DNA from: Frankia nepalensis
GTDB taxonomy: Bacteria > Actinomycetota > Actinomycetes > Frankiales > Frankiaceae
Assembly (NCBI RefSeq): GCF_016786325.1
Contig: NZ_JADWYU010000190.1
Coordinates: 1 to 37,460, forward strand
Reading direction: 5' to 3'
Length of the DNA: 37,460 bases
The translations under genes and the position numbers were made by a program. The notes under the pieces are model-generated. The model ran no database searches. It was not told the origin of the DNA and saw only the letters and a list, made by a program, of their open reading frames with translations. This document shows, in pieces, positions 5,676 through 27,382 of this stretch; position 1 is the first letter of the stretch; each line of letters begins with the position of its first letter.

Positions 5676-6158
5676 GTGCCCGTGGCCCGCGTCGAGCGGA
5701 CGACCGGACCGACCGACTCCGACGTCGACCTGCATGTCCCCGCGCAGCGCTCGGAACTTCGACGCGCGCCGATTCCGACGCTGGCGGTGATCTCCGCCGG
5801 CGGGGTGCTGGGATCATGCGCCCGCTACGGGGCGTCGCTGGCGTGGCCGACGCCGCCCGGGGCGTTCCCGTGGACGACGTGGGCGGTCAACGTGACCGGG
5901 TGCGCGGCGATCGGCGTCCTGATGGTCCTGATCGCCGAAGTCCGCGCCGCGCATCCGCTGGTCCGGCCATTCCTGGGCACCGGGATGCTGGGCGGGTTCA
6001 CCACCTTCTCCACCTACGCCGTCGACGCGCAGCGGCTGGTGGACGAGGAGCGGGCCGGGATGGCGCTGGCCTATCTGGTGGTGACCGTGCTCGGCGCGCT
6101 GGGCGCGGTCTGGGTCGCCGCCGTCATGACCCGGCGGTACGCGAGGAGGCGGATATGA
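5676..6158 (+). CDS. crcB: fluoride efflux channel subunit CrcB (first copy)
   Basis: 160 residues with a ~30-residue polar N-terminal extension, then four predicted membrane helices. Family motifs: [11 protein letters not shown] in helix 1, WAVNVTGC with the conserved Asn in helix 2, and [17 protein letters not shown] in helix 3, whose Phe and Thr/Ser residues line the fluoride path. CrcB/Fluc channels are dual-topology dimers that let fluoride leave the cytoplasm. The GTG start follows AGGTAGGGG. The stop overlaps the DUF190 gene as ATGA. As in many Gram-positives, a second crcB follows, suggesting a heterodimer. Confidence 0.95.
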
Positions 6159-6502
6159 CGAGGCTGACCGGCCGGGCGCTGCGGCTGACGGTGTTCATCG
6201 GCGAGAGCGACCAGTGGCACCATCGGCCGCTGGCCAGCGAGATCGTGCACCGTGCGCACCGCTCGGGGCTGGCCGGCGCCAGCGTCTTCCACGGGGTGGA
6301 GGGGTTCGGTGCCTCGTCGGTCGTGCACACCACCCGGCTGCTGTCCCTGAGCGAGGACCTGCCGGTCGCGGTGGTCATCGTCGACGACGAGCCGCGGATA
6401 CGCGCCTTCCTGCCCCAGCTCGACGAGCTCGTCCGCGAAGGACTGGTCATCCTCGACGAGGTCGAGGTGATCCGTTACGTCGGTCGAGAGGCGGGCCGGT
6501 GA
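6155..6502 (+). CDS. DUF190 family protein in the fluoride operon
   Basis: 115 residues from an ATG that overlaps the crcB stop (ATGA) and has GAGGAGGCGG just upstream. The sequence matches the PII-like DUF190 fold: [32 protein letters not shown], and [17 protein letters not shown]190 genes commonly lie beside crcB; the biochemical role is not established, though a nucleotide- or ion-sensing PII-like role has been suggested for the fold. It is soluble, without signal peptide or membrane helix. Its stop overlaps the second crcB as GTGA, so all three proteins are probably made in fixed ratio. Confidence 0.9.
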
Positions 6503-6873
6503 ACTTGCTGCTGGTGATCGCCGGAGCGGCGGTGGGCGCGCCGCTGCGCTACCTGACCGACCGGGCGGTGCAGGCCCGCCACGACGCGGTCTTCCCGTGG
6601 GGGACGTTCGCGGTGAACGTCGCGGCCAGCCTGCTGCTCGGCCTGGTCACCGGCGCGGTGGTGGCGGGAGCCGCCTCGCAGCGGGTGGCGTCGCTGGTCG
6701 GAACCGGGCTGTGCGGCGCCCTGAGCACCTATTCGACGTTCTCCTACGAGACGCTGCGGCTGGCCGAGACCGGCTCACGGATGCTCGCCGTGGCCAACGT
6801 CGTCGCCAGCGTGCTCGCCGCGTTCGCGGCCGCCGTCGCCGGTACGGCGATGGCGCGGGCGATCTGGGCGTGA
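6499..6873 (+). CDS. crcB: fluoride efflux channel subunit CrcB (second copy)
   Basis: 124 residues, the standard CrcB length without extension. Motifs: [13 protein letters not shown] in helix 1, [15 protein letters not shown] with the pore Asn in helix 2, [17 protein letters not shown] in helix 3, and a fourth hydrophobic helix. Start is a GTG overlapping the DUF190 stop. It differs enough from the first copy that an obligate heterodimer with opposed topologies is likely, the usual arrangement for paired actinobacterial copies; this is inferred from gene pairing. Confidence 0.95.
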
Positions 6874-18938: not shown

Positions 18939-21900
18939 TCACCCGACGACGAGAGTCGATGTTCCTCGCCCGGACACCCCGGTCAGGCCGGGGTTGTAGT
19001 CGAATGTTCCCGCTGGTGTGAGCACCAGCGGGAAGGTGCGGCCGGCGGGGCAGGACACGAAGGTGAACGAGCCGGGGAGCAGCCGCGGCTGGCCCGCGGC
19101 CGGATGCGCGGGTATCCACCCGGTGGTCGGGCTGAGAGCGAAAGCCTGGCAGGTCAGTGCGGTGGCATCGATCGTGACCGGCAGGCCCTGCACCGCGAGG
19201 GTGGTGGTCCCACGGCCCGACGCGTAGCCGATCTGCGGGTCGAAATCGACCCTGCCGTCGGCTCCGACGGTGAACGGAACAGGTGTGCTACCGGCGACGG
19301 TGAAGCTGTACCGCCCGGGCAACAGCCGCACGACCTGCGACGTCCGCGAGTTCAACCACCCCGTAGCCGGAGCGATACTAAACGCCTGCGCCGTCAACGA
19401 CGTCGCATCCACCGTGACCGGCAAGCCCTGCACCGCGAGCGTGGTGGTCCCACGGCCCGACGCGTAGCCGATCTGCGGGTCGAAATCGACCCTGCCGTCG
19501 GCTCCGACGGTGAACGGAACAGGTGTGCTACCGGCGACGGTGAAGCTGTACCGCCCGGGCAACAGCCGCACGACCTGCGACGTCCGCGAGTTCAACCACC
19601 CCGTAGCCGGAGCGATACTAAACGCCTGCGCCGTCAACGACGTCGCATCCACCGTGACCGGCAAGCCCTGCACCGCGAGCGTGGTGGTCCCACGGCCCGA
19701 CAGGTAACTGATCTGCGGATCGAAATCGACCCTGCCGATCGAGTTCACCGTGAAGGGGACGGCCGCGCTACCCGGTGTGTGCACGGTGTACCGGCCCGGC
19801 GCCAGCTGCCGGGTGTGGGTCACCCGCGCGTTCAGCCATCCGTTCACGCCGGAGAGGCTGAACGACGAGGCGGACAGCGCGGTGAGGTCGAGCGTGGTGG
19901 GAGCCGCGGCGACCGTGAACCCGCTCATCTGGCGCTCGGCGGCCTCGATGACGGCGGGGTCGGCCTCGTACTGGACCGGGTGGATCGGGCCGGCGTCGGC
20001 GAGGTTCGGTAGCCCCTGGAAGTCGAAGAAAAGATTGTTCCAGTCCTCGAACCCGTTCAGAGGAGTGATCTTGTTGTCGTCGGTGCCGTCACCGTCATCG
20101 TCGTTGTTGATATCCAGGGAAAGGTTGGTGTTATTCGGCGGCGGGCACGTCGCGCCCTGCAGGGTCTCCATCATCGAAGCGTCGACGCTTTGGTCCCAGT
20201 TTTTGGTGAGATCGAGTGCAGGGCCCAAGCCGGCGCATTCATCGAGACTGTTCTCGTCAAGATTCACGACGATGCGGCTGTAGTCACAGCCACCGGGGAG
20301 CTGGACGGTCGCGAGCGGCCCCGAACGGAACACCAGGCATCTTTGGAACGCGTAGTTCATGACGCTGGGGTAGTTGGGCTTTCTGTTCACGTCGTCCCCG
20401 CCGCCGTGCTTGAGCCCGAGGGTGTGGCCGAGTTCATGCATGAACGTGCCGGCCTGCTCGGCGGCGTTGCCTACCGAGAATCCGCTGTCTTCGTCGACGC
20501 CGAGGTCCCCGCGGTCGCACGGGTCCCCGTCTCCGTCCGTGTCACCGGCGCAGTCGTTGTCGTCCGGTTCGTCGACGTCGTTCCAGGGGTCTTCGTCCGT
20601 GCGCCCGTCGCCGTCGTCATCGATCCCGTTGGACGCGGTCGGGGTCCAGCACGGAATTTCGGGCGCCGAGTCACTGTCGAGATTACGGCCGCCGCCCAGG
20701 GTGACCATGAAATCGTTGCCCTTGATGTCCTCGGCCCAGCCACTGGTGCAGTCGTTCGCTTGGGCCCGCGAGTTGGTCTGGTGGCCGAAGATGGCGTAGC
20801 GGAAGATGTCCTCCCGCTGGGAATAGCTGAAGTTGGCGCCCTTCAGCTGATGGAAGTCCGTACCGGGCCACCCGTTGGTTCCGTCCCAATCTATGATCTC
20901 GTTGCCCGCCTCGGGGATCTGGCTGCCGCCACCGCCCAGGTTGCCGATGCTTCCCCTGACGCCACCGGAGCCGTTGATCTGGACGGAGCCCGGGCCGTAC
21001 AGCGGGCCGGTGTCGAGGTGAAGCTGGATGCCGGTGGTGCCGTCGCCGGGATTCGACACCGGCGCGGCGGCGAACGCTCTGACGACGTCAGTCAGCGCGG
21101 ACTGGTCGGGGCAGTGTGAATGGCTGGCCGCGACCAGGCAGTCGACCTCGACGAAGACGTCCTTGCGCAGCGGGTTGGCACCGAGCGCCGGCAGGTCGAC
21201 GTAGACGTTCCCGGCGGAGTCGTATCCGTGGTATCCGTACGTCTCCCAGCTGTCGAACAGGGCGTCTCCGTCGGCGTCCCCGCTGGCCGAGAGGGTGCTG
21301 GCCGCGAAGCAGAGCCGGACCGCCCGGCCGCCGGAGCCCTCGGCGCAGCCGGGCCACGCCACGTCCCCCGACCACTTGCCGTCTGCGAGATTGACGGTGA
21401 GCGCAAGCGTGCTCGACTCGGTCGGGCTGACGTCGGCCTGCTGGTCGTCGATGATGTCGTCGTCGTCCCAGATTTCGATGGCGACAGGTACGCTGCCCAG
21501 GGCGCTGTCCACCGTCTGGGTAATGGTCCAGGACTTCGGTGGTGTCAGCTTGTACGTACCGCCCGGCCCCGCGACGGTGCCGGTACCGACACTGAACCCG
21601 AAATCGAACCGGTTCGCATAGGTGTCCTGCCACGGGCCGCCGTTGATGGACACGCGCGCGTAGAAGTCGCCGATCGGGCCGTCGATCAAAGGAATGTCGT
21701 CGATGCCCTGGCCGATCTGGATCAGTTTGGTGAACGAGATGGTGACCGGAACCGGCGTCCCGGCCGCAGCGGGTTGGGCGGTCACGGCGCCGACGGTGAA
21801 CGCCGCCAAAGCGGCCGCGGCAGCGGCGGCCAGGCGGCATCTCCATGGCCGGCGGTCACGTGCCGACGACACTCCCGCGGGACGCGTCCCCGCCGGTGCC

Positions 21901-21995
21901 GAAGCCACGAGGCTGCACAGCAGATGTGGCGCGCGCCGCCGCCCCGCTAGTTCACCCCTGGTCGACCGGGCATTGCTTCGCCCAATTTTCAGCAT
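18939..21995 (-). CDS. secreted metzincin metalloprotease with calcium motifs and C-terminal repeats
   Basis: About 1018 residues from ATG 21995 (frame open to 22118). A basic stretch and RLAAAAAAALAAFTVGAV with AQPAAAG form a long signal peptide. The middle holds zinc motif HELGHTLGLKH (His520, His524, His530; Glu521 general base) and the Met-turn SVMNYAF, which define metzincins. Calcium-type Asp-rich loops (DADGDALFDSW, DDDGDGRTDED, DTDGDGDPCD, DDDGDGTDDN) surround it, like thrombospondin type 3 or dockerin loops. Residues from ~720 form four ~80-residue repeats with GLPVTVDATSLTAQAFS and GWLNSRTSQVVRLLPG, possibly beta-sandwich modules for wall or substrate binding. Likely an exported protease; substrate unknown. 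I do not recognise the repeat as a named domain. Confidence 0.85.
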   Translation of the reverse strand: MLKIGRSNARSTRGELAGRRRAPHLLCSLVASAPAGTRPAGVSSARDRRPWRCRLAAAAAAALAAFTVGAVTAQPAAAGTPVPVTISFTKLIQIGQGIDDIPLIDGPIGDFYARVSINGGPWQDTYANRFDFGFSVGTGTVAGPGGTYKLTPPKSWTITQTVDSALGSVPVAIEIWDDDDIIDDQQADVSPTESSTLALTVNLADGKWSGDVAWPGCAEGSGGRAVRLCFAASTLSASGDADGDALFDSWETYGYHGYDSAGNVYVDLPALGANPLRKDVFVEVDCLVAASHSHCPDQSALTDVVRAFAAAPVSNPGDGTTGIQLHLDTGPLYGPGSVQINGSGGVRGSIGNLGGGGSQIPEAGNEIIDWDGTNGWPGTDFHQLKGANFSYSQREDIFRYAIFGHQTNSRAQANDCTSGWAEDIKGNDFMVTLGGGRNLDSDSAPEIPCWTPTASNGIDDDGDGRTDEDPWNDVDEPDDNDCAGDTDGDGDPCDRGDLGVDEDSGFSVGNAAEQAGTFMHELGHTLGLKHGGGDDVNRKPNYPSVMNYAFQRCLVFRSGPLATVQLPGGCDYSRIVVNLDENSLDECAGLGPALDLTKNWDQSVDASMMETLQGATCPPPNNTNLSLDINNDDDGDGTDDNKITPLNGFEDWNNLFFDFQGLPNLADAGPIHPVQYEADPAVIEAAERQMSGFTVAAAPTTLDLTALSASSFSLSGVNGWLNARVTHTRQLAPGRYTVHTPGSAAVPFTVNSIGRVDFDPQISYLSGRGTTTLAVQGLPVTVDATSLTAQAFSIAPATGWLNSRTSQVVRLLPGRYSFTVAGSTPVPFTVGADGRVDFDPQIGYASGRGTTTLAVQGLPVTVDATSLTAQAFSIAPATGWLNSRTSQVVRLLPGRYSFTVAGSTPVPFTVGADGRVDFDPQIGYASGRGTTTLAVQGLPVTIDATALTCQAFALSPTTGWIPAHPAAGQPRLLPGSFTFVSCPAGRTFPLVLTPAGTFDYNPGLTGVSGRGTSTLVVG
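19201..19701 (-). repeat. exact 240-bp tandem repeat inside the metzincin gene
   Basis: Bases 19201-19440 and 19441-19680 are identical at all 240 positions, and the identity continues 21 bases into a third copy. The period is 80 codons, so the frame is kept. Flanking repeats one and four are diverged. Identity including synonymous sites means very recent duplication or conversion. Confidence 0.97.
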
Positions 21996-22239
21996 GCGAC
22001 GGGCCCCCGTTCCGCCGGCACTGTGTCCCGGGCGCGACCCGCCGAAGGACAAGAGGAGCATAGAGGTTTGAAGTGGTGACTGGGAACGGTCTCGCCAAGA
22101 ATTTCGAGACCGTGACACAGTCAGGGCCTATGGAGTCATGTTCCCGTTGGCCGGCCCGCCGCCGGTCGCGAGAGCTAGGTACGGGGCGCTGTCGCGTTCG
22201 GCGGAGGCGAGGCATGGCGGATGCGGGTTACCGCCCTGC

Positions 22240-23337: not shown

Positions 23338-23611
23338 CTGGACATAACCCTCAATATTCCATCTGTCGAGAATCGCGTATTCTGCCGGATCGCGGTCGAG
23401 CACCGCGAAAGGCCGGTCGTTCCCGGTTAGCGGTCCATTCATCGGGTAGAACTGCGCCGCGACGGTTACGGCGTCGCGGGGCGTAACCCCTTCCTGCCGG
23501 GTTTTTCGAGCCAACAGTCGGGAACCGACGAGCCTCCTGTTAACGTGGGCCGCGGTGACCCACCATTCGGCTGCGCTATGAACGAGTTTCGAATGTCAGA
23601 GGTGAGAACAG

Positions 23612-23923
23612 ATGACGGCTACCATCTCCAAACATCGCGTGATGGCGGCTGCGACGTCGATCGTGCTGGCCACCGCGGGTGTCGGACTGCCAGCGACCGC
23701 CATCGCCGCGCCGACGGCGCATGCGACCGCCCCGATCGCGAGAGTCACCACCCACAGCTGCTATGATCAGGGATACGACGACGGCTGGTGGGACGGCTTC
23801 TGGGACTCACTCGTCGGATCGGAAACTCCAGTCGTCCCCGCGCCGCCGGTCGAGTGCCACGATGGCCTTGACTATAGCGACTATGTATCCGGTTACCTCA
23901 TCGGCTACGCCGCCGGCTATTAA
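23612..23923 (+). CDS. small secreted protein with xDG-aromatic tetrapeptide repeats (family member 1)
   Basis: 103 residues from ATG with AGAGGTGAG upstream. Residues 1-33 form a signal peptide (MAAATSIVLATAGVGLPATA then AIAA). The mature part has Cys50 followed by a period-4 run YDQGYDDGWWDGFWDS, a Pro linker, Cys82, and a tail GLDYSDYVSGYLIGYAAGY with Gly-Tyr every four residues. The signal peptide clearly aligns with those of the genes at 25110 and 26197. The two Cys may form a disulfide outside the cell. No known domain recognised; an adhesive, metal-binding or antimicrobial role would be speculation. Confidence 0.75.
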   Translation: MTATISKHRVMAAATSIVLATAGVGLPATAIAAPTAHATAPIARVTTHSCYDQGYDDGWWDGFWDSLVGSETPVVPAPPVECHDGLDYSDYVSGYLIGYAAGY

Positions 23924-24524
23924 TGAAACGGGAGTCGCTGACCGGTTTCCGGCGCCTTACGTCTCAAGGGAGAAGTCCGGCTGCGAGGTGCTGCTTCCGC
24001 TGGTCCCGTTGGCTGGCGCGGCTGTGATGAGGACGCTCGCGGAAATGGCCCGACCCGGCTCTCCGCACGCCAAGCCGGCAGACCGCGGTAGGCGATGACA
24101 GAGAGTTGGCGGCGGGGGGCGGTGGTCGGTCTGGGATGTTCGCGAGCTGGGGCTGATCCATCCGCGCGGCAGCCGTCCTCCGAGGGACATGCCCCCGGAG
24201 GACGGCTGCCGGTCGACAAGAGCTGTGCGCCGAGCGCGCGACCGAACACACCCGAAACAAGGCCACCGGGCAGGGCCACCGCCATCCCCGCCGAGGCCGC
24301 GAGGAGAAGTGCAAGCGCCGCCCCCACCGCCGCCTCCCACCGTGGGCTCCACCATCCGGTCGACTTGACCGGTGGCGTCCCCCTCCGTCCCGCGCCAGCG
24401 CCCCCCAGCCACCCGCCGCGGGAGCGGGGCCGCCGTCGGACAAGGCGAACGGACCGCCCCAAGCGGGCAGGCCGCGCCGTCACAGTCACAACGCGAACAT
24501 GCGAGAGCCCTGGGTGGTCGAGCA
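23924..24524. other. 600-bp region without a supported gene
   Basis: It follows the small secreted gene. Long overlapping frames on both strands are GC artefacts, although one minus frame has a hydrophobic run near 24270-24345 that could be left from a membrane protein. The only clear structure is the hairpin at 24167-24211. Confidence 0.4.
24167..24211. terminator. 16-bp-arm stem-loop
   Basis: CGGCAGCCGTCCTCCG (24167-24182) pairs perfectly with CGGAGGACGGCTGCCG (24196-24211) around 13 bases that can add three more pairs. It is 244 bases after the small secreted gene; no T-run. It may be a terminator or the remnant of an inverted repeat. Confidence 0.45.
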
Positions 24525-24943
24525 CCTGTCGACCAGTCCCTGCTGAAGGTCGACGACACGCCATCGGGCACCCGGTTTCGCATGCTGGAGACGGTGCGGG
24601 AGTTCGGCGAAGCCAGGCGGAACGCCGCGGGCGAGACCGAGCGGGTCGTCGAGGAGTTCCCGGCCTGGGCCCGGGCCTTCGCCATCGCGTGTCATGACGG
24701 TCCGCTCGAGCGCGCGAGCCGGCGCCGGCCGCCGAGTGCGTACGGGGCCGAACACAACAGCCCGCCGCGGGCGCTGCGCTTGGGGCTGGCGGCCAGCGGC
24801 GGCACCACCGTCGTGGCGAACTGGCCGGTGACGCCTATAGCCGCGCGGACCGCGTCCGGTTCCGCCGCCAGGTCGCGACCTGCGACGGGACAACATCCGC
24901 CTCACCCAGGTCCTCGAGTTCTCCCTGGACCGCCGCTGAGGCG
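24525..24943 (+). pseudogene. fragment of NB-ARC / LuxR-SARP type ATPase regulator
   Basis: VDQSLLKVDDTPSGTRFRML and ETVREFGEARRNAAGETERV match the winged-helix segment after the NB-ARC ATPase of large actinobacterial regulators. Weaker family-like pieces follow (RALRLGLAASGGTTV, then in another frame DNIRLTQVLEFSLDRR and a stop). ATP-binding motifs and DNA-binding parts are absent. A decayed relic. Confidence 0.5.
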
Positions 24944-25065
24944 CTGCCCGCGGGAGACCGGGCGCGGGAGAGCGGCCGCGTCGCGTGGCACGGCCACCGT
25001 CGTTGAGTAATAGCAGGGCACGGGGGGGGGATCACGAAGGACGGCGTGACCACGTTGATCGAAAG

Positions 25066-25096
25066 CAGCGGCTGGTGCTCATGGCGCCAGCCGCTG
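25066..25096 (-). terminator. hairpin after small secreted gene A
   Basis: CAGCGGCTGG pairs with CCAGCCGCTG across an 11-base loop, 13 bases after the stop of the gene at 25110. In copy B only the arm next to the gene survives, because the duplication begins inside the loop at 25083. Confidence 0.5.
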
Positions 25097-25887
25097 TCAG
25101 CGCTCAGGACTAGAATTGACCACAGTCGGTGCATCCGGCGGACCAGCCGATGTCATAGCCGTCGGAATAGCCGTCCAAATAGCCGTCGCTGTAGTCCGAG
25201 GCGTCCTTTGTGATAGCGGTGGTGGAGTGCGCGGGAGATGCGGCGGTCGCGGCGGTCGGTACTCCCACACCGGCGGTGGTCAGCAATGCCAGAATCGCGG
25301 CCGCCGTCATGCGACGGCACTTCGACGTAGTAGCCATGAACAGCTCCATCCTGTGACATCGGATCTCGTCCCCCAGACGGGGGAGCGGCGTCCGGAGACG
25401 GCCGCGCGGCGAGCGCGCCATCATCTCCCTTCCATTCGCCTGGCCGGAAATCCCCATGGAAGGCGATACCGAGGGTCGACGGCGGACTGGTCACGCGTCG
25501 TCATTTTTCCCGGGAGGCCGGACGCCAACCAGGCGCGCCCGTTTTATGGATGCTCCATGACCGGCTTGCCCGGGGAAAGACCCCTCTTATCTGCGCCGAT
25601 CCCCCGGCGCGGCGCGAGTCCAGCCGGTCTGGGAAAGTCCCGTCCGATATGACTCATGTGCGGACGGCGCGCACATTCATTCGCAAGACTCCGGCATGTT
25701 TGCGTTCTGTCCGGCTTGTCGCGGGAAGCCGTGGAGGTTGAGCGCGGCGGCGGCGGTCTTGTGGGCGCGGCGGCCGGGCGGGATGTAGCGGTAGCCGGCG
25801 CGGCGGAGGACGTTGACGACGGCGCCGCGGAAGACGTTGACGACGGCGCCGCGGAAGACGGCGAGGGACGCGCCTGTCCCTTTGACC
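25083..25887. repeat. ~800-bp direct repeat, copy A
   Basis: Matches 26170-26950. Apart from about a dozen substitutions in the last ~75 bases of the peptide gene and one extra 24-bp tandem unit (EDVDDGAA codons in one frame, near 25815-25862), I saw no differences. The copy contains a small secreted gene, its leader, and a piece of a transposase-like end. It stops exactly where the inverted-repeat element at 25886 begins. Confidence 0.93.
25110..25337 (-). CDS. small secreted xDG-aromatic repeat protein (family member A)
   Basis: 75 residues from ATG 25337, with GGAG six bases upstream; a longer frame to 25457 is unlikely. Signal peptide: basic SKCRR, then AAAILALLTTAGVGVPTAA and cleavage near TAA-SPAHS. 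The mature ~42 residues are acidic and aromatic: DYSDGYLDGYSDGYDIGW, a four-residue periodicity, then SAGCTDCGQF with a CxxC pair. Exported by Sec; the CxxC may form a disulfide or bind metal. Homologous to 23612 and nearly identical to 26197 except at the C-terminus. A hairpin TCCCCC-AGAC-GGGGGA lies in its leader (25369-25384). Unknown function. Confidence 0.75.
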   Translation of the reverse strand: MATTSKCRRMTAAAILALLTTAGVGVPTAATAASPAHSTTAITKDASDYSDGYLDGYSDGYDIGWSAGCTDCGQF

Positions 25888-26170
25888 CGACTTTTGTCAG
25901 GCTAGTGCGCACCGCACGCCCGACCAGCCCTTGACAATCTTGCCGTCACGGACCGTTAGGCCGGGCGGCCGCCGGAGGGCTCTGCCTGCGAGCGAGTTGG
26001 CACTCTGTGGGTAAAGACGTTGACCACGCGGGGCTGGTGGATCCGGCCGAGGGTGCAGCGGCGCGGGGCCGGGCCGTCAGCTAGTGCGCACTTTTCACCG
26101 CCAGCGCCGACATCCTCGCGGATCACAGGATCGGGATCTAGCCGGAGTGATCAACGTGACAAAAGTCGGG
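25886..26170. mobile_element. 285-bp element with perfect 14-bp terminal inverted repeats
   Basis: CCCGACTTTTGTCA at 25886-25899 and its exact complement TGACAAAAGTCGGG at 26157-26170 bound a segment lying precisely between repeat copies A and B. An internal CTAGTGCGCAC occurs at 25902 and 26081. There is no transposase frame; it looks like a MITE or internally deleted IS. No target duplication is obvious. Confidence 0.6.
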
Positions 26171-26950
26171 GCGCCAGCCGCTGTCAGCGCTCAGGACTAG
26201 AATTCAAGACAGGCGTCGCATCCGGCGGACCAGCCGTCGTCATAGCCGTCGGAAAGGCCGTCCCAGTAGCCGTCGCTGTAGTCCGAGGCGTCCTTTGTGA
26301 TAGCGGTGGTGGAGTGCGCGGGAGATGCGGCGGTCGCGGCGGTCGGTACTCCCACACCGGCGGTGGTCAGCAATGCCAGAATCGCGGCCGCCGTCATGCG
26401 ACGGCACTTCGACGTAGTAGCCATGAACAGCTCCATCCTGTGACATCGGATCTCGTCCCCCAGACGGGGGAGCGGCGTCCGGAGACGGCCGCGCGGCGAG
26501 CGCGCCATCATCTCCCTTCCATTCGCCTGGCCGGAAATCCCCATGGAAGGCGATACCGAGGGTCGACGGCGGACTGGTCACGCGTCGTCATTTTTCCCGG
26601 GAGGCCGGACGCCAACCAGGCGCGCCCGTTTTATGGATGCTCCATGACCGGCTTGCCCGGGGAAAGACCCCTCTTATCTGCGCCGATCCCCCGGCGCGGC
26701 GCGAGTCCAGCCGGTCTGGGAAAGTCCCGTCCGATATGACTCATGTGCGGACGGCGCGCACATTCATTCGCAAGACTCCGGCATGTTTGCGTTCTGTCCG
26801 GCTTGTCGCGGGAAGCCGTGGAGGTTGAGCGCGGCGGCGGCGGTCTTGTGGGCGCGGCGGCCGGGCGGGATGTAGCGGTAGCCGGCGCGGCGGAGGACGT
26901 TGACGACGGCGCCGCGGAAGACGGCGAGGGACGCGCCTGTCCCTTTGACC
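26170..26950. repeat. ~780-bp direct repeat, copy B
   Basis: Second copy of 25083-25887, in the same orientation, beginning at the right end of the inverted-repeat element. It lacks one 24-bp tandem unit. Past 26950 the sequence continues into the transposase-like remnant, so this copy keeps the longer, presumably ancestral, flank. Confidence 0.93.
26197..26424 (-). CDS. small secreted xDG-aromatic repeat protein (family member B)
   Basis: 75 residues with the same start, ribosome site and signal peptide as the gene at 25110; the first ~53 residues are identical. The mature tail differs at seven of the last 22 residues: DYSDGYWDGLSDGYDDGW then SAGCDACLEF. The CxxC pair and Gly periodicity are kept while residues between them change. 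Its downstream hairpin has been lost at the duplication joint, so expression may read through. Unknown function. Confidence 0.75.
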   Translation of the reverse strand: MATTSKCRRMTAAAILALLTTAGVGVPTAATAASPAHSTTAITKDASDYSDGYWDGLSDGYDDGWSAGCDACLEF

Positions 26951-27052
26951 GCGACACGTGGCCCAGCCGTGTCCACTCCCGCGAACCACCCACCACCAGT
27001 CCGACCTGGCAGACCCGGCATACCGGTCAACCTCAAACATGCCGGAGTCTTG
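26771..27052 (-). mobile_element. IS remnant with 19-bp inverted ends and transposase C-terminus
   Basis: CAAGACTCCGGCATGTTTG (26771-26789) and its exact complement (27034-27052) bound 282 bp. Inside, a minus frame reads ASLAVFRGAVVNVLRRAGYR then RAHKTAAAALNLHGF and ends at 26764 within or just past the left end, as transposase genes often do. The pattern resembles the end of IS4/ISAs1-type transposases (LRNLAIGLLRLAGxxNIA), though this is a weak match. Copy A keeps only the left end at 25684. Confidence 0.55.
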
Positions 27053-27382
27053 GCGACCCAGCGGGGCGTGAAGGCGCTCGATCGGTGTAGGGCTGCAACT
27101 CGGCTGCTTGCAGGGCAACGGAGGGCTAACTGCATGCTGTCGCACCTCGGGCACGGACTGTGCGATGTCGGTCATCCGTGAGCAGATAGCCGGCGGGTTC
27201 CGGGAACCGATGGGTTCGTAGGAGCTGTCCGGCGCCTAGGCCGGCCTGGTGCCCGTCGGGGTGCGGGCGGCGGAGGAGCCAGCGATGACCATGACGGCGC
27301 ATGTCATGACCGACGAGTCCGGGGAGGATGTGGCGGACAGATCGATCCTGCTGGTGGAGTTGCGGTTGGCGGATCGGAGGGA
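27053..27382. other. 330-bp region without a supported gene
   Basis: It joins the inverted-repeat-bounded IS remnant to the IS6 N-terminal remnant. I see no protein family, RNA gene or notable repeat in it. Confidence 0.4.

What the first reader, a model, noticed from the sequence alone, without database searches (positions are those of the whole stretch)
23612..26424. A family of small secreted proteins built on xDG-aromatic tetrapeptide repeats
Three genes (23612-23923, 25110-25337, 26197-26424) share an alignable signal peptide and a mature part in which Gly then Tyr/Trp/Phe recur every four residues (YDQGYDDGWWDGF; DGYLDGYSDGYDIGW), with two Cys each. I recognise no named domain. Strict period, acidity, aromatics and export suggest a surface, adhesive, metal-binding or self-assembling peptide. 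All three lie in an island of mobile-element debris.
Basis: partly seen in the sequence, partly recalled or inferred. Interest (0 to 1): 0.75.

Follow-up and report, generated by a model that had tools for sequence, protein, structure and literature searches.

The report
Variable secreted glycine-aromatic repeat peptides
One actinomycete genome carries at least seven small export-type genes whose front ends are kept alike while the glycine- and tyrosine-rich exported part varies; they may be surface or matrix peptides that stick to one another, but no function has been shown.

Summary
The three ORFs are at the stated coordinates. Genes 2 and 3 lie on the minus strand and are a recent tandem duplicate (91% identical protein), so they are not independent evidence. 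Four more paralogues lie on three other contigs of the same genome. No true relative appeared in the 34 other held genomes of its family, a 393-genome class sample, or the GTDB, viral, phage and plasmid collections as searched. No Pfam or NCBIfam cut-off is met.

The repeat itself is not unprecedented. In the clearest member, Gly plus aromatic every four residues resembles the GxxxG segment of FliH (E 1.3e-6; 0 of 5 shuffles match), and DGYxDGYxDGY recurs in unrelated proteins of many phyla.

What is unusual is the pattern of change. Leader and signal peptide are better conserved than the mature part in most comparisons; the tandem pair has 0 differences in 692 nt but 12 in a 62-nt stretch of the repeat. 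A diversity-generating retroelement was sought and not found; dN/dS in the mature part is not significantly above 1. 'Mobile-element debris' is supported by one Uma2 fragment only. Most likely: lineage-restricted, duplicating, exported, self-associating surface or matrix peptides; export and self-association are inferred.

The parts
23612..23923 (+). gene a: 103-aa precursor; signal peptide about 23612-23710, mature part 23711-23920 with QGYDDGWWDGF and SGYLIGYAAGY
   Evidence: no signal-peptide predictor was available, cleavage site read from the sequence
23469..23611 (+). approximate type B leader of gene a, alignable with the leaders of the C374 pair
   Evidence: start is approximate, set by the 143-nt identical run of the C374 pair
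25110..25337 (-). gene b: 75-aa precursor, DGYLDGYSDGYDIGWSAG repeat
26197..26424 (-). gene c: 75-aa precursor, DGYWDGLSDGYDDGWSAG repeat; tandem copy of gene b
25338..25684 (-). type A leader of gene b, conserved in the C49 unit (and its nearer part in C275)
26425..26771 (-). type A leader of gene c, identical to that of gene b
25066..25096 (-). hairpin after gene b, terminator-like; a stronger relative follows the C49 gene
   Evidence: z -2.33 for gene b, -5.34 for C49; not reported by the strict consensus scan
25083..25887 (.). tandem duplication unit 1
26170..26950 (.). tandem duplication unit 2; lacks one 24-nt repeat and the far half of the hairpin
25118..25179 (-). 62-nt stretch of gene b that holds all 12 coding differences from gene c
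26205..26266 (-). the matching 62-nt stretch of gene c

Best explanation
A family of at least seven stand-alone genes in one actinomycete genome. Each has its own upstream leader, conserved within each of two subtypes, a Sec-type signal peptide of about 32 residues, a short linker, and an acidic mature peptide of 34-79 residues; two also have a terminator-like hairpin. In the clearest members the mature part carries GxxxG repeats with Tyr or Trp after the glycine and mostly Asp before it. Inferred mechanism: the precursor is exported by Sec and cut at A-x-A; the peptide then self-associates through its Gly/aromatic face (GxxxG helix packing as proposed for FliH, or multivalent aromatic contacts if it stays disordered) and forms part of the cell surface or extracellular matrix. 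Variants arise by gene duplication, with expression and export elements kept alike while the mature segment changes. Shown: paralogy, anatomy, period in four of seven members, pattern of divergence. Inferred: export, self-association, location, any benefit of variation.
For: Seven paralogues on four contigs, profile E 1.1e-39 to 4.8e-27. Leader conservation, hairpin after genes b and C49, signal part with pN/pS 0.40-0.80. Period against shuffles in four of seven. FliH-type GxxxG match of the C49 protein to four NCBIfam FliH models, best 1.3e-6; the mature part alone still matches and 0 of 5 shuffles do. Of 23 GxxxG units, x1 is Tyr 19, Trp 3, Leu 1; in FliH GxxxG repeats Tyr and Phe exceed 45% of x1 (PMC2674601, passages). 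0 differences in 692 nt against 12 in 62 nt between genes b and c.
Against: Only 1 of 7 members matches the FliH models; 3 of 7 show no significant period. AlphaFold2 gave no confident structure (mean pLDDT 49.9 and 55.8). x3 is mainly Asp, whereas FliH prefers Glu, Gln and Ala. No relative outside this genome, no expression data, no sigma-70-type promoter match. dN/dS in the mature part not significantly above 1 (p 0.20).
Confidence: 0.4

Rival explanations
1. Diversifying secreted recognition or antagonism peptides (kin recognition, bacteriocin-like, host- or phage-facing): conserved export leader, selected variation in the mature peptide.
For: 12 changes in 62 nt of the mature part against 0 in 692 nt around it, 7 of 8 changed codons nonsynonymous; second pair with 143 identical leader nt and a mature part 81% identical with indels.
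Against: dN 0.208 vs dS 0.144 combined, Fisher one-sided p 0.20; synonymous change is raised too in the C374 mature part; no immunity, processing or transport gene seen beside the copies that were read; PADLOC gave nothing.
Confidence: 0.25
2. Neutral or decaying repeat family: slippage of the 12-nt repeat and gene conversion of the 5' part make the mature part look variable; the peptides have little function.
For: 12-nt tandem repeats in genes a and b; dN/dS not above 1; no orthologue in 34 family genomes; three members with weak period.
Against: All seven frames are open, with conserved start region, signal part under constraint and ribosome-binding-site-like sequence in most; conversion on both sides of a 62-nt stretch is not an obvious neutral outcome.
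Confidence: 0.22
3. Acidic metal- or calcium-binding exported peptide.
For: Net charge of the mature parts -6 to -12.
Against: Cys not conserved; no known metal-binding motif matched in Pfam; untested directly.
Confidence: 0.08
4. Variable regions of a diversity-generating retroelement (DGR).
For: In the tandem pair 11 of 12 differences fall at codon positions 1 and 2, and all four doubly changed codons are NNY with the same third base.
Against: No template copy of the region found in the assembly; the only RVT_1 matches are two pieces on one contig that read like one interrupted group II intron maturase (that label is my reading, not a test); the C374 pair changes many third positions and has indels. 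The assembly is a draft, so absence is not proof.
Confidence: 0.03

Closest known systems
GxxxG repeat segment of the flagellar export regulator FliH (and YscL)
   Same: Gly every four residues with an aromatic at x1; C49 mature part matches four NCBIfam FliH models, best 1.3e-6 for the precursor and 1.2e-5 for the mature part, 0 of 5 shuffles
   Different: FliH is a long cytosolic protein; only the repeat matches (28 bits against a cut-off of 180), 1 of 7 members matches, x3 is mainly Asp, and these precursors carry a signal peptide
deca-GX3 motif of Yae1/Lto1 (Pfam Yae1_N)
   Same: GX3 repeat; proposed there to drive complex formation (PMC4523923, passages)
   Different: Match below cut-off (E 0.02, 15 against 27.5 bits, 1 of 7 members); eukaryotic cytosolic adaptors
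phrog_4785 (phage protein family of unknown function)
   Same: C49 protein matches at 5.7e-8 over the repeat; mature part alone 2.4e-5, 0 of 5 shuffles
   Different: Only profile positions 37-76 of 94 match; no function known; likely a shared repeat rather than descent
Exported lipoproteins of Bacteroidota and others with DGY runs
   Same: Runs such as YWNGYNDGYWDGYWDGYYDG behind export-type N-termini
   Different: Much larger proteins, other phyla, other N-termini; probably convergent

Membership tests
FliH | GxxxG repeat with aromatic x1 | tested here: met
   C49 member only, 1 of 7
FliH | Curated full-length model cut-off | tested here: not met
   28.2 bits against 180 for the best model
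FliH | Cytosolic, beside flagellar export genes | tested here: not met
   signal-peptide-like start; neighbours read are not flagellar
Yae1_N (deca-GX3) | Pfam gathering score | tested here: not met
   15 against 27.5 bits
DGR target protein | Template repeat near-identical to the variable region | tested here: not met
   only the two tandem copies match well in the draft genome
DGR target protein | DGR-type reverse transcriptase in the genome | tested here: inconclusive
   two RVT_1 matches on one contig, read as a split group II intron maturase without a specific test
DGR target protein | Variation confined to adenine-derived positions, typically NNY codons | tested here: inconclusive
   b/c pair compatible; C374 pair not
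Sec-exported small protein | Basic n-region, hydrophobic core, A-x-A-like site | tested here: met
   by eye on all seven; no predictor available
Sec-exported small protein | Presence outside the cell | not testable with these tools
   needs secretome data
Named surface proteins of actinomycetes (chaplins, rodlins) | Pfam or NCBIfam match | tested here: not met
   no such family among the matches listed for the seven members; that these families are in the libraries is assumed

The most novel reading that the evidence does not exclude
A bacterial counterpart of conotoxin-style families: secreted peptides whose leader and signal peptide are held identical while the mature part changes far faster than its flanks, by an unknown recombination or targeted-mutation process under selection for novelty.
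Probability: 0.2. Interest if true: 0.75.

Novelty: new variant of a known kind. Interest (0 to 1): 0.45.

Why it matters
It places the GxxxG-aromatic repeat, described in cytosolic adaptors, in small export-type peptides, and offers a compact case (seven copies, two close pairs) in which to ask how and why a bacterium keeps an export leader fixed while the exported peptide varies.

Tried and rejected
Families: Pfam, NCBIfam and PADLOC gave nothing at cut-off; sub-threshold Pfam matches were Yae1_N 0.02, nec1 0.062 and DUF2623 0.1, one member of seven each. PHROGs has no cut-offs; phrog_4785 matched 3 of 7 members at E<=1. Rfam: nothing at gathering score in the window, one sub-threshold match taken as chance. 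Structured leader RNA: covariation term +0.8 on three sequences, no support. DGR: not found, see rivals. MelC matches among PDB sequences (E 0.03) run through an Ala-rich signal peptide and were dropped. No fold search was run, because both models were of low confidence.

Relatives: pattern hits L013, L015 and L020 are other proteins. The five class hits outside the own genome at E<=1e-4 were read and carry no such repeat; L242 is a small Trp/Tyr/Gly-rich export-type frame, at most an analogue. The weak family hits (G004, G024, G031, G021, G027), the class hits L010 and L011 and the weak own-genome hits on C107, C336 and C88 were read: long frames of other kinds; L024, L026 and L032 hold one, one and two GYxxGY motifs somewhere in frames of 486, 509 and 591 codons. 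Other weak or unlisted candidates were not read. phrog_4785 was found in 7 of 296 class genomes, own included; those six other loci were not read.

The GTDB scan gave 59 stretches and 58 frames, a number of them short frames without a start and not convincing genes. The signal-peptide scans used one peptide pattern each. tblastn of phages and plasmids found nothing, but BLAST's low-complexity filter may hide the repeat.
Full report
What is there. The three ORFs exist at the stated coordinates. Gene a is on the plus strand; genes b (25110-25337) and c (26197-26424) are on the minus strand. Genes b and c belong to two copies of one tandem unit, 25083-25887 and 26170-26950, start-to-start distance 1087 nt. 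They count as one sequence plus a recent copy.

The family. A search of the window's own genome (10.7 Mb, 398 contigs; the window is contig C10) found four further members on contigs C49, C374 (two) and C275. A profile of the seven (A1) recovers all seven with E 1.1e-39 to 4.8e-27. The C49 member has the clearest repeat, YYDGYYDGYSDGYDYGYEYGYDGGYQDGYTDGL, with seven GxxxG steps, and no cysteine in its mature part; C275 also lacks them. The copies lie in different contexts: beside ArsR/phosphatase and amidohydrolase genes (C49), an aminotransferase and an ADP-ribosylglycohydrolase (C374), a GNAT protein and an enoyl-CoA hydratase (C275). Each looks self-contained.

Distribution. None of the 34 other held genomes of the family has a convincing member; at E<=0.01 five of them gave weak matches, all read as long frames of other kinds, and at 1e-4 only G004 remained. 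In the class sample, 6 of 393 genomes match at E<=1e-4, one of them the own genome; the other five were read and are not members. In the mixed set of 58 relatives, 4 matched at E<=0.01, own included. GTDB and viral scans keyed on the signal peptide and tblastn of phages and plasmids found nothing. Limits: one peptide pattern per scan, BLAST masks simple repeats, one genome per species.

Is the period more than chance? G-x3-G counts against 20000 composition shuffles: p 0.0019 (a), 0.0005 (b), 0.0001 (c), 0.00015 (C49), 0.058 (C374b), 0.43 (C374a), 0.74 (C275). It is real in the window genes and in C49, and weak or absent in three members. Over the seven, 23 GxxxG units have x1 = Tyr 19, Trp 3, Leu 1 and x3 = Asp 14.

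What the repeat resembles. No Pfam or NCBIfam cut-off is met. Below cut-off, the C49 protein, alone of the seven, matches four NCBIfam FliH models, best 1.3e-6; its mature part alone still matches (1.2e-5) and 0 of 5 shuffles do. The same control holds for phrog_4785 (2.4e-5 against none). In FliH, Tyr and Phe make up over 45% of x1 in GxxxG repeats, Glu, Gln and Ala about two thirds of x3, and contacts of aromatic side chains with glycine backbone of a neighbouring helix were proposed (PMC2674601, passages). In Yae1-Lto1 the deca-GX3 motif serves complex formation (PMC4523923, passages). DGYxDGYxDGY is also found elsewhere: at least 120 stretches of viral contigs (of the 80 read, most are GYGD low complexity) and, with G-starting codons excluded at x, 59 stretches of GTDB genomes, several in long export-type Bacteroidota proteins. 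So the repeat recurs, probably by convergence; the small family that carries it here is not in the libraries searched.

Anatomy of a unit. Upstream DNA is alike between copies on different contigs: type A (b, c, C49, C275) over about 350 nt between b and C49 and about 200 nt between b and C275, and type B (a and the C374 pair), with 143 identical nt in the C374 pair. A purine-rich AGGATGGAGC-like element precedes the start codon in most. Genes b and C49 have a hairpin right after the stop (z -2.33 and -5.34); the other five 3' flanks folded no better than shuffles (z -0.01 to 0.91), gene c included, whose duplicate ends inside it. The consensus scan found neither a sigma-70 promoter nor a strict terminator in 24950-27100. 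The signal part has pN/pS 0.40-0.80 in the four paralogue pairs compared.

Where the change sits. Between genes b and c there are 0 differences in 499 nt of leader, the first 158 coding nt, the last 8 and 27 nt beyond the stop (692 nt in all), a 24-nt indel farther up followed by 27 identical nt, and 12 differences within 62 nt of the repeat; if changes fell evenly the bound on such clustering is about 7e-11. Seven of eight changed codons are nonsynonymous. In the C374 pair, 143 leader nt and the first 62 coding nt are identical, the first 78 coding nt differ at 2 places, and the mature part is 81% identical with 50 gap columns. In five more distant pairs the mature part is 55-57% identical, the signal part 69-85% and the 170-nt leader 57-81%; in C49/C275 leader and mature part hardly differ (57 and 55%). 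The mature coding part is thus the fastest-changing part in most comparisons, which are not independent of one another. Against a simple selection story, dN exceeds dS only slightly (0.208 and 0.144 for both pairs together; Fisher one-sided p 0.20; b/c alone p 0.15), and synonymous change is also raised in the C374 mature part. Conversion that spares the mature part, slippage of the 12-nt unit or a local hot spot remain possible. A DGR was looked for and not found. The genome is a draft, so the identity of the tandem units should be confirmed.

Structure. Two AlphaFold2 runs, with the seven-row alignment and with the C49 mature part alone, gave mean pLDDT 49.9 and 55.8; the first has one short helix in the signal peptide only, and for the second DSSP returned nothing. 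This neither supports nor excludes helical packing in an oligomer.

The neighbourhood. The stretch between 22.1 and 27.5 kb is gene-poor by codon composition. Of seven debris ORFs scanned with Pfam one matched, the C-terminal part of Uma2, and 26760-27240 has no further genomic match at E<=1e-6 than itself and its tandem copy. I saw no transposase match.

Literature. A secretome study of three Frankia strains (PMC2266912, passages) and a Parafrankia exoproteome study (PMC11093716, passages) show no such family in the passages I saw. Searches for Frankia secretomes, Pseudofrankia genomes, conserved-leader peptide families and YDGY repeats listed no paper whose title or abstract start describes it; this is no proof of absence from print.

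Verdict. Observation confirmed with corrections; interpretation partly supported. Best reading: a lineage-restricted, expanding family of export-type, acidic, Gly-aromatic repeat peptides that probably self-associate at the surface or in the matrix, with the exported part changing faster than its expression and export elements.

Noticed in passing
window 18939-22118 (-): Long export-type protein with weak metallopeptidase matches (M66, M10, reprolysin-like) and near-identical C-terminal repeats of roughly 80 residues.
   Followed up: no
window 5676-6158 and about 6490-6873 (+): Two small membrane-protein frames in a row that look like paired CrcB/FluC fluoride channels (recalled resemblance, no test).
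   Followed up: no
window 25684-25702, 26771-26789 and 27034-27052: A perfect 19-nt sequence, CAAGACTCCGGCATGTTTG, in both tandem units and inverted once beyond them; possibly a relic of the duplication or of an element end.
   Followed up: partly
window 25796-25860: 24-nt tandem repeat, 2.7 copies, whose copy number differs between the two tandem units.
   Followed up: partly
L004 573-689 (+): Rfam Ms_IGR-7 small RNA match above gathering score, about 20 nt beyond the stop of one C374 paralogue, on the opposite strand.
   Followed up: no
L242: A small export-type frame in another family of the class ending in HHDGWWDDGYYYGGG, possibly an analogue.
   Followed up: no
L091 (viral contig): A lipoprotein-like frame of 203 codons with YTDGYWDGYTDGYWDGYWNGYYED on a contig classed as viral.
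   Followed up: no
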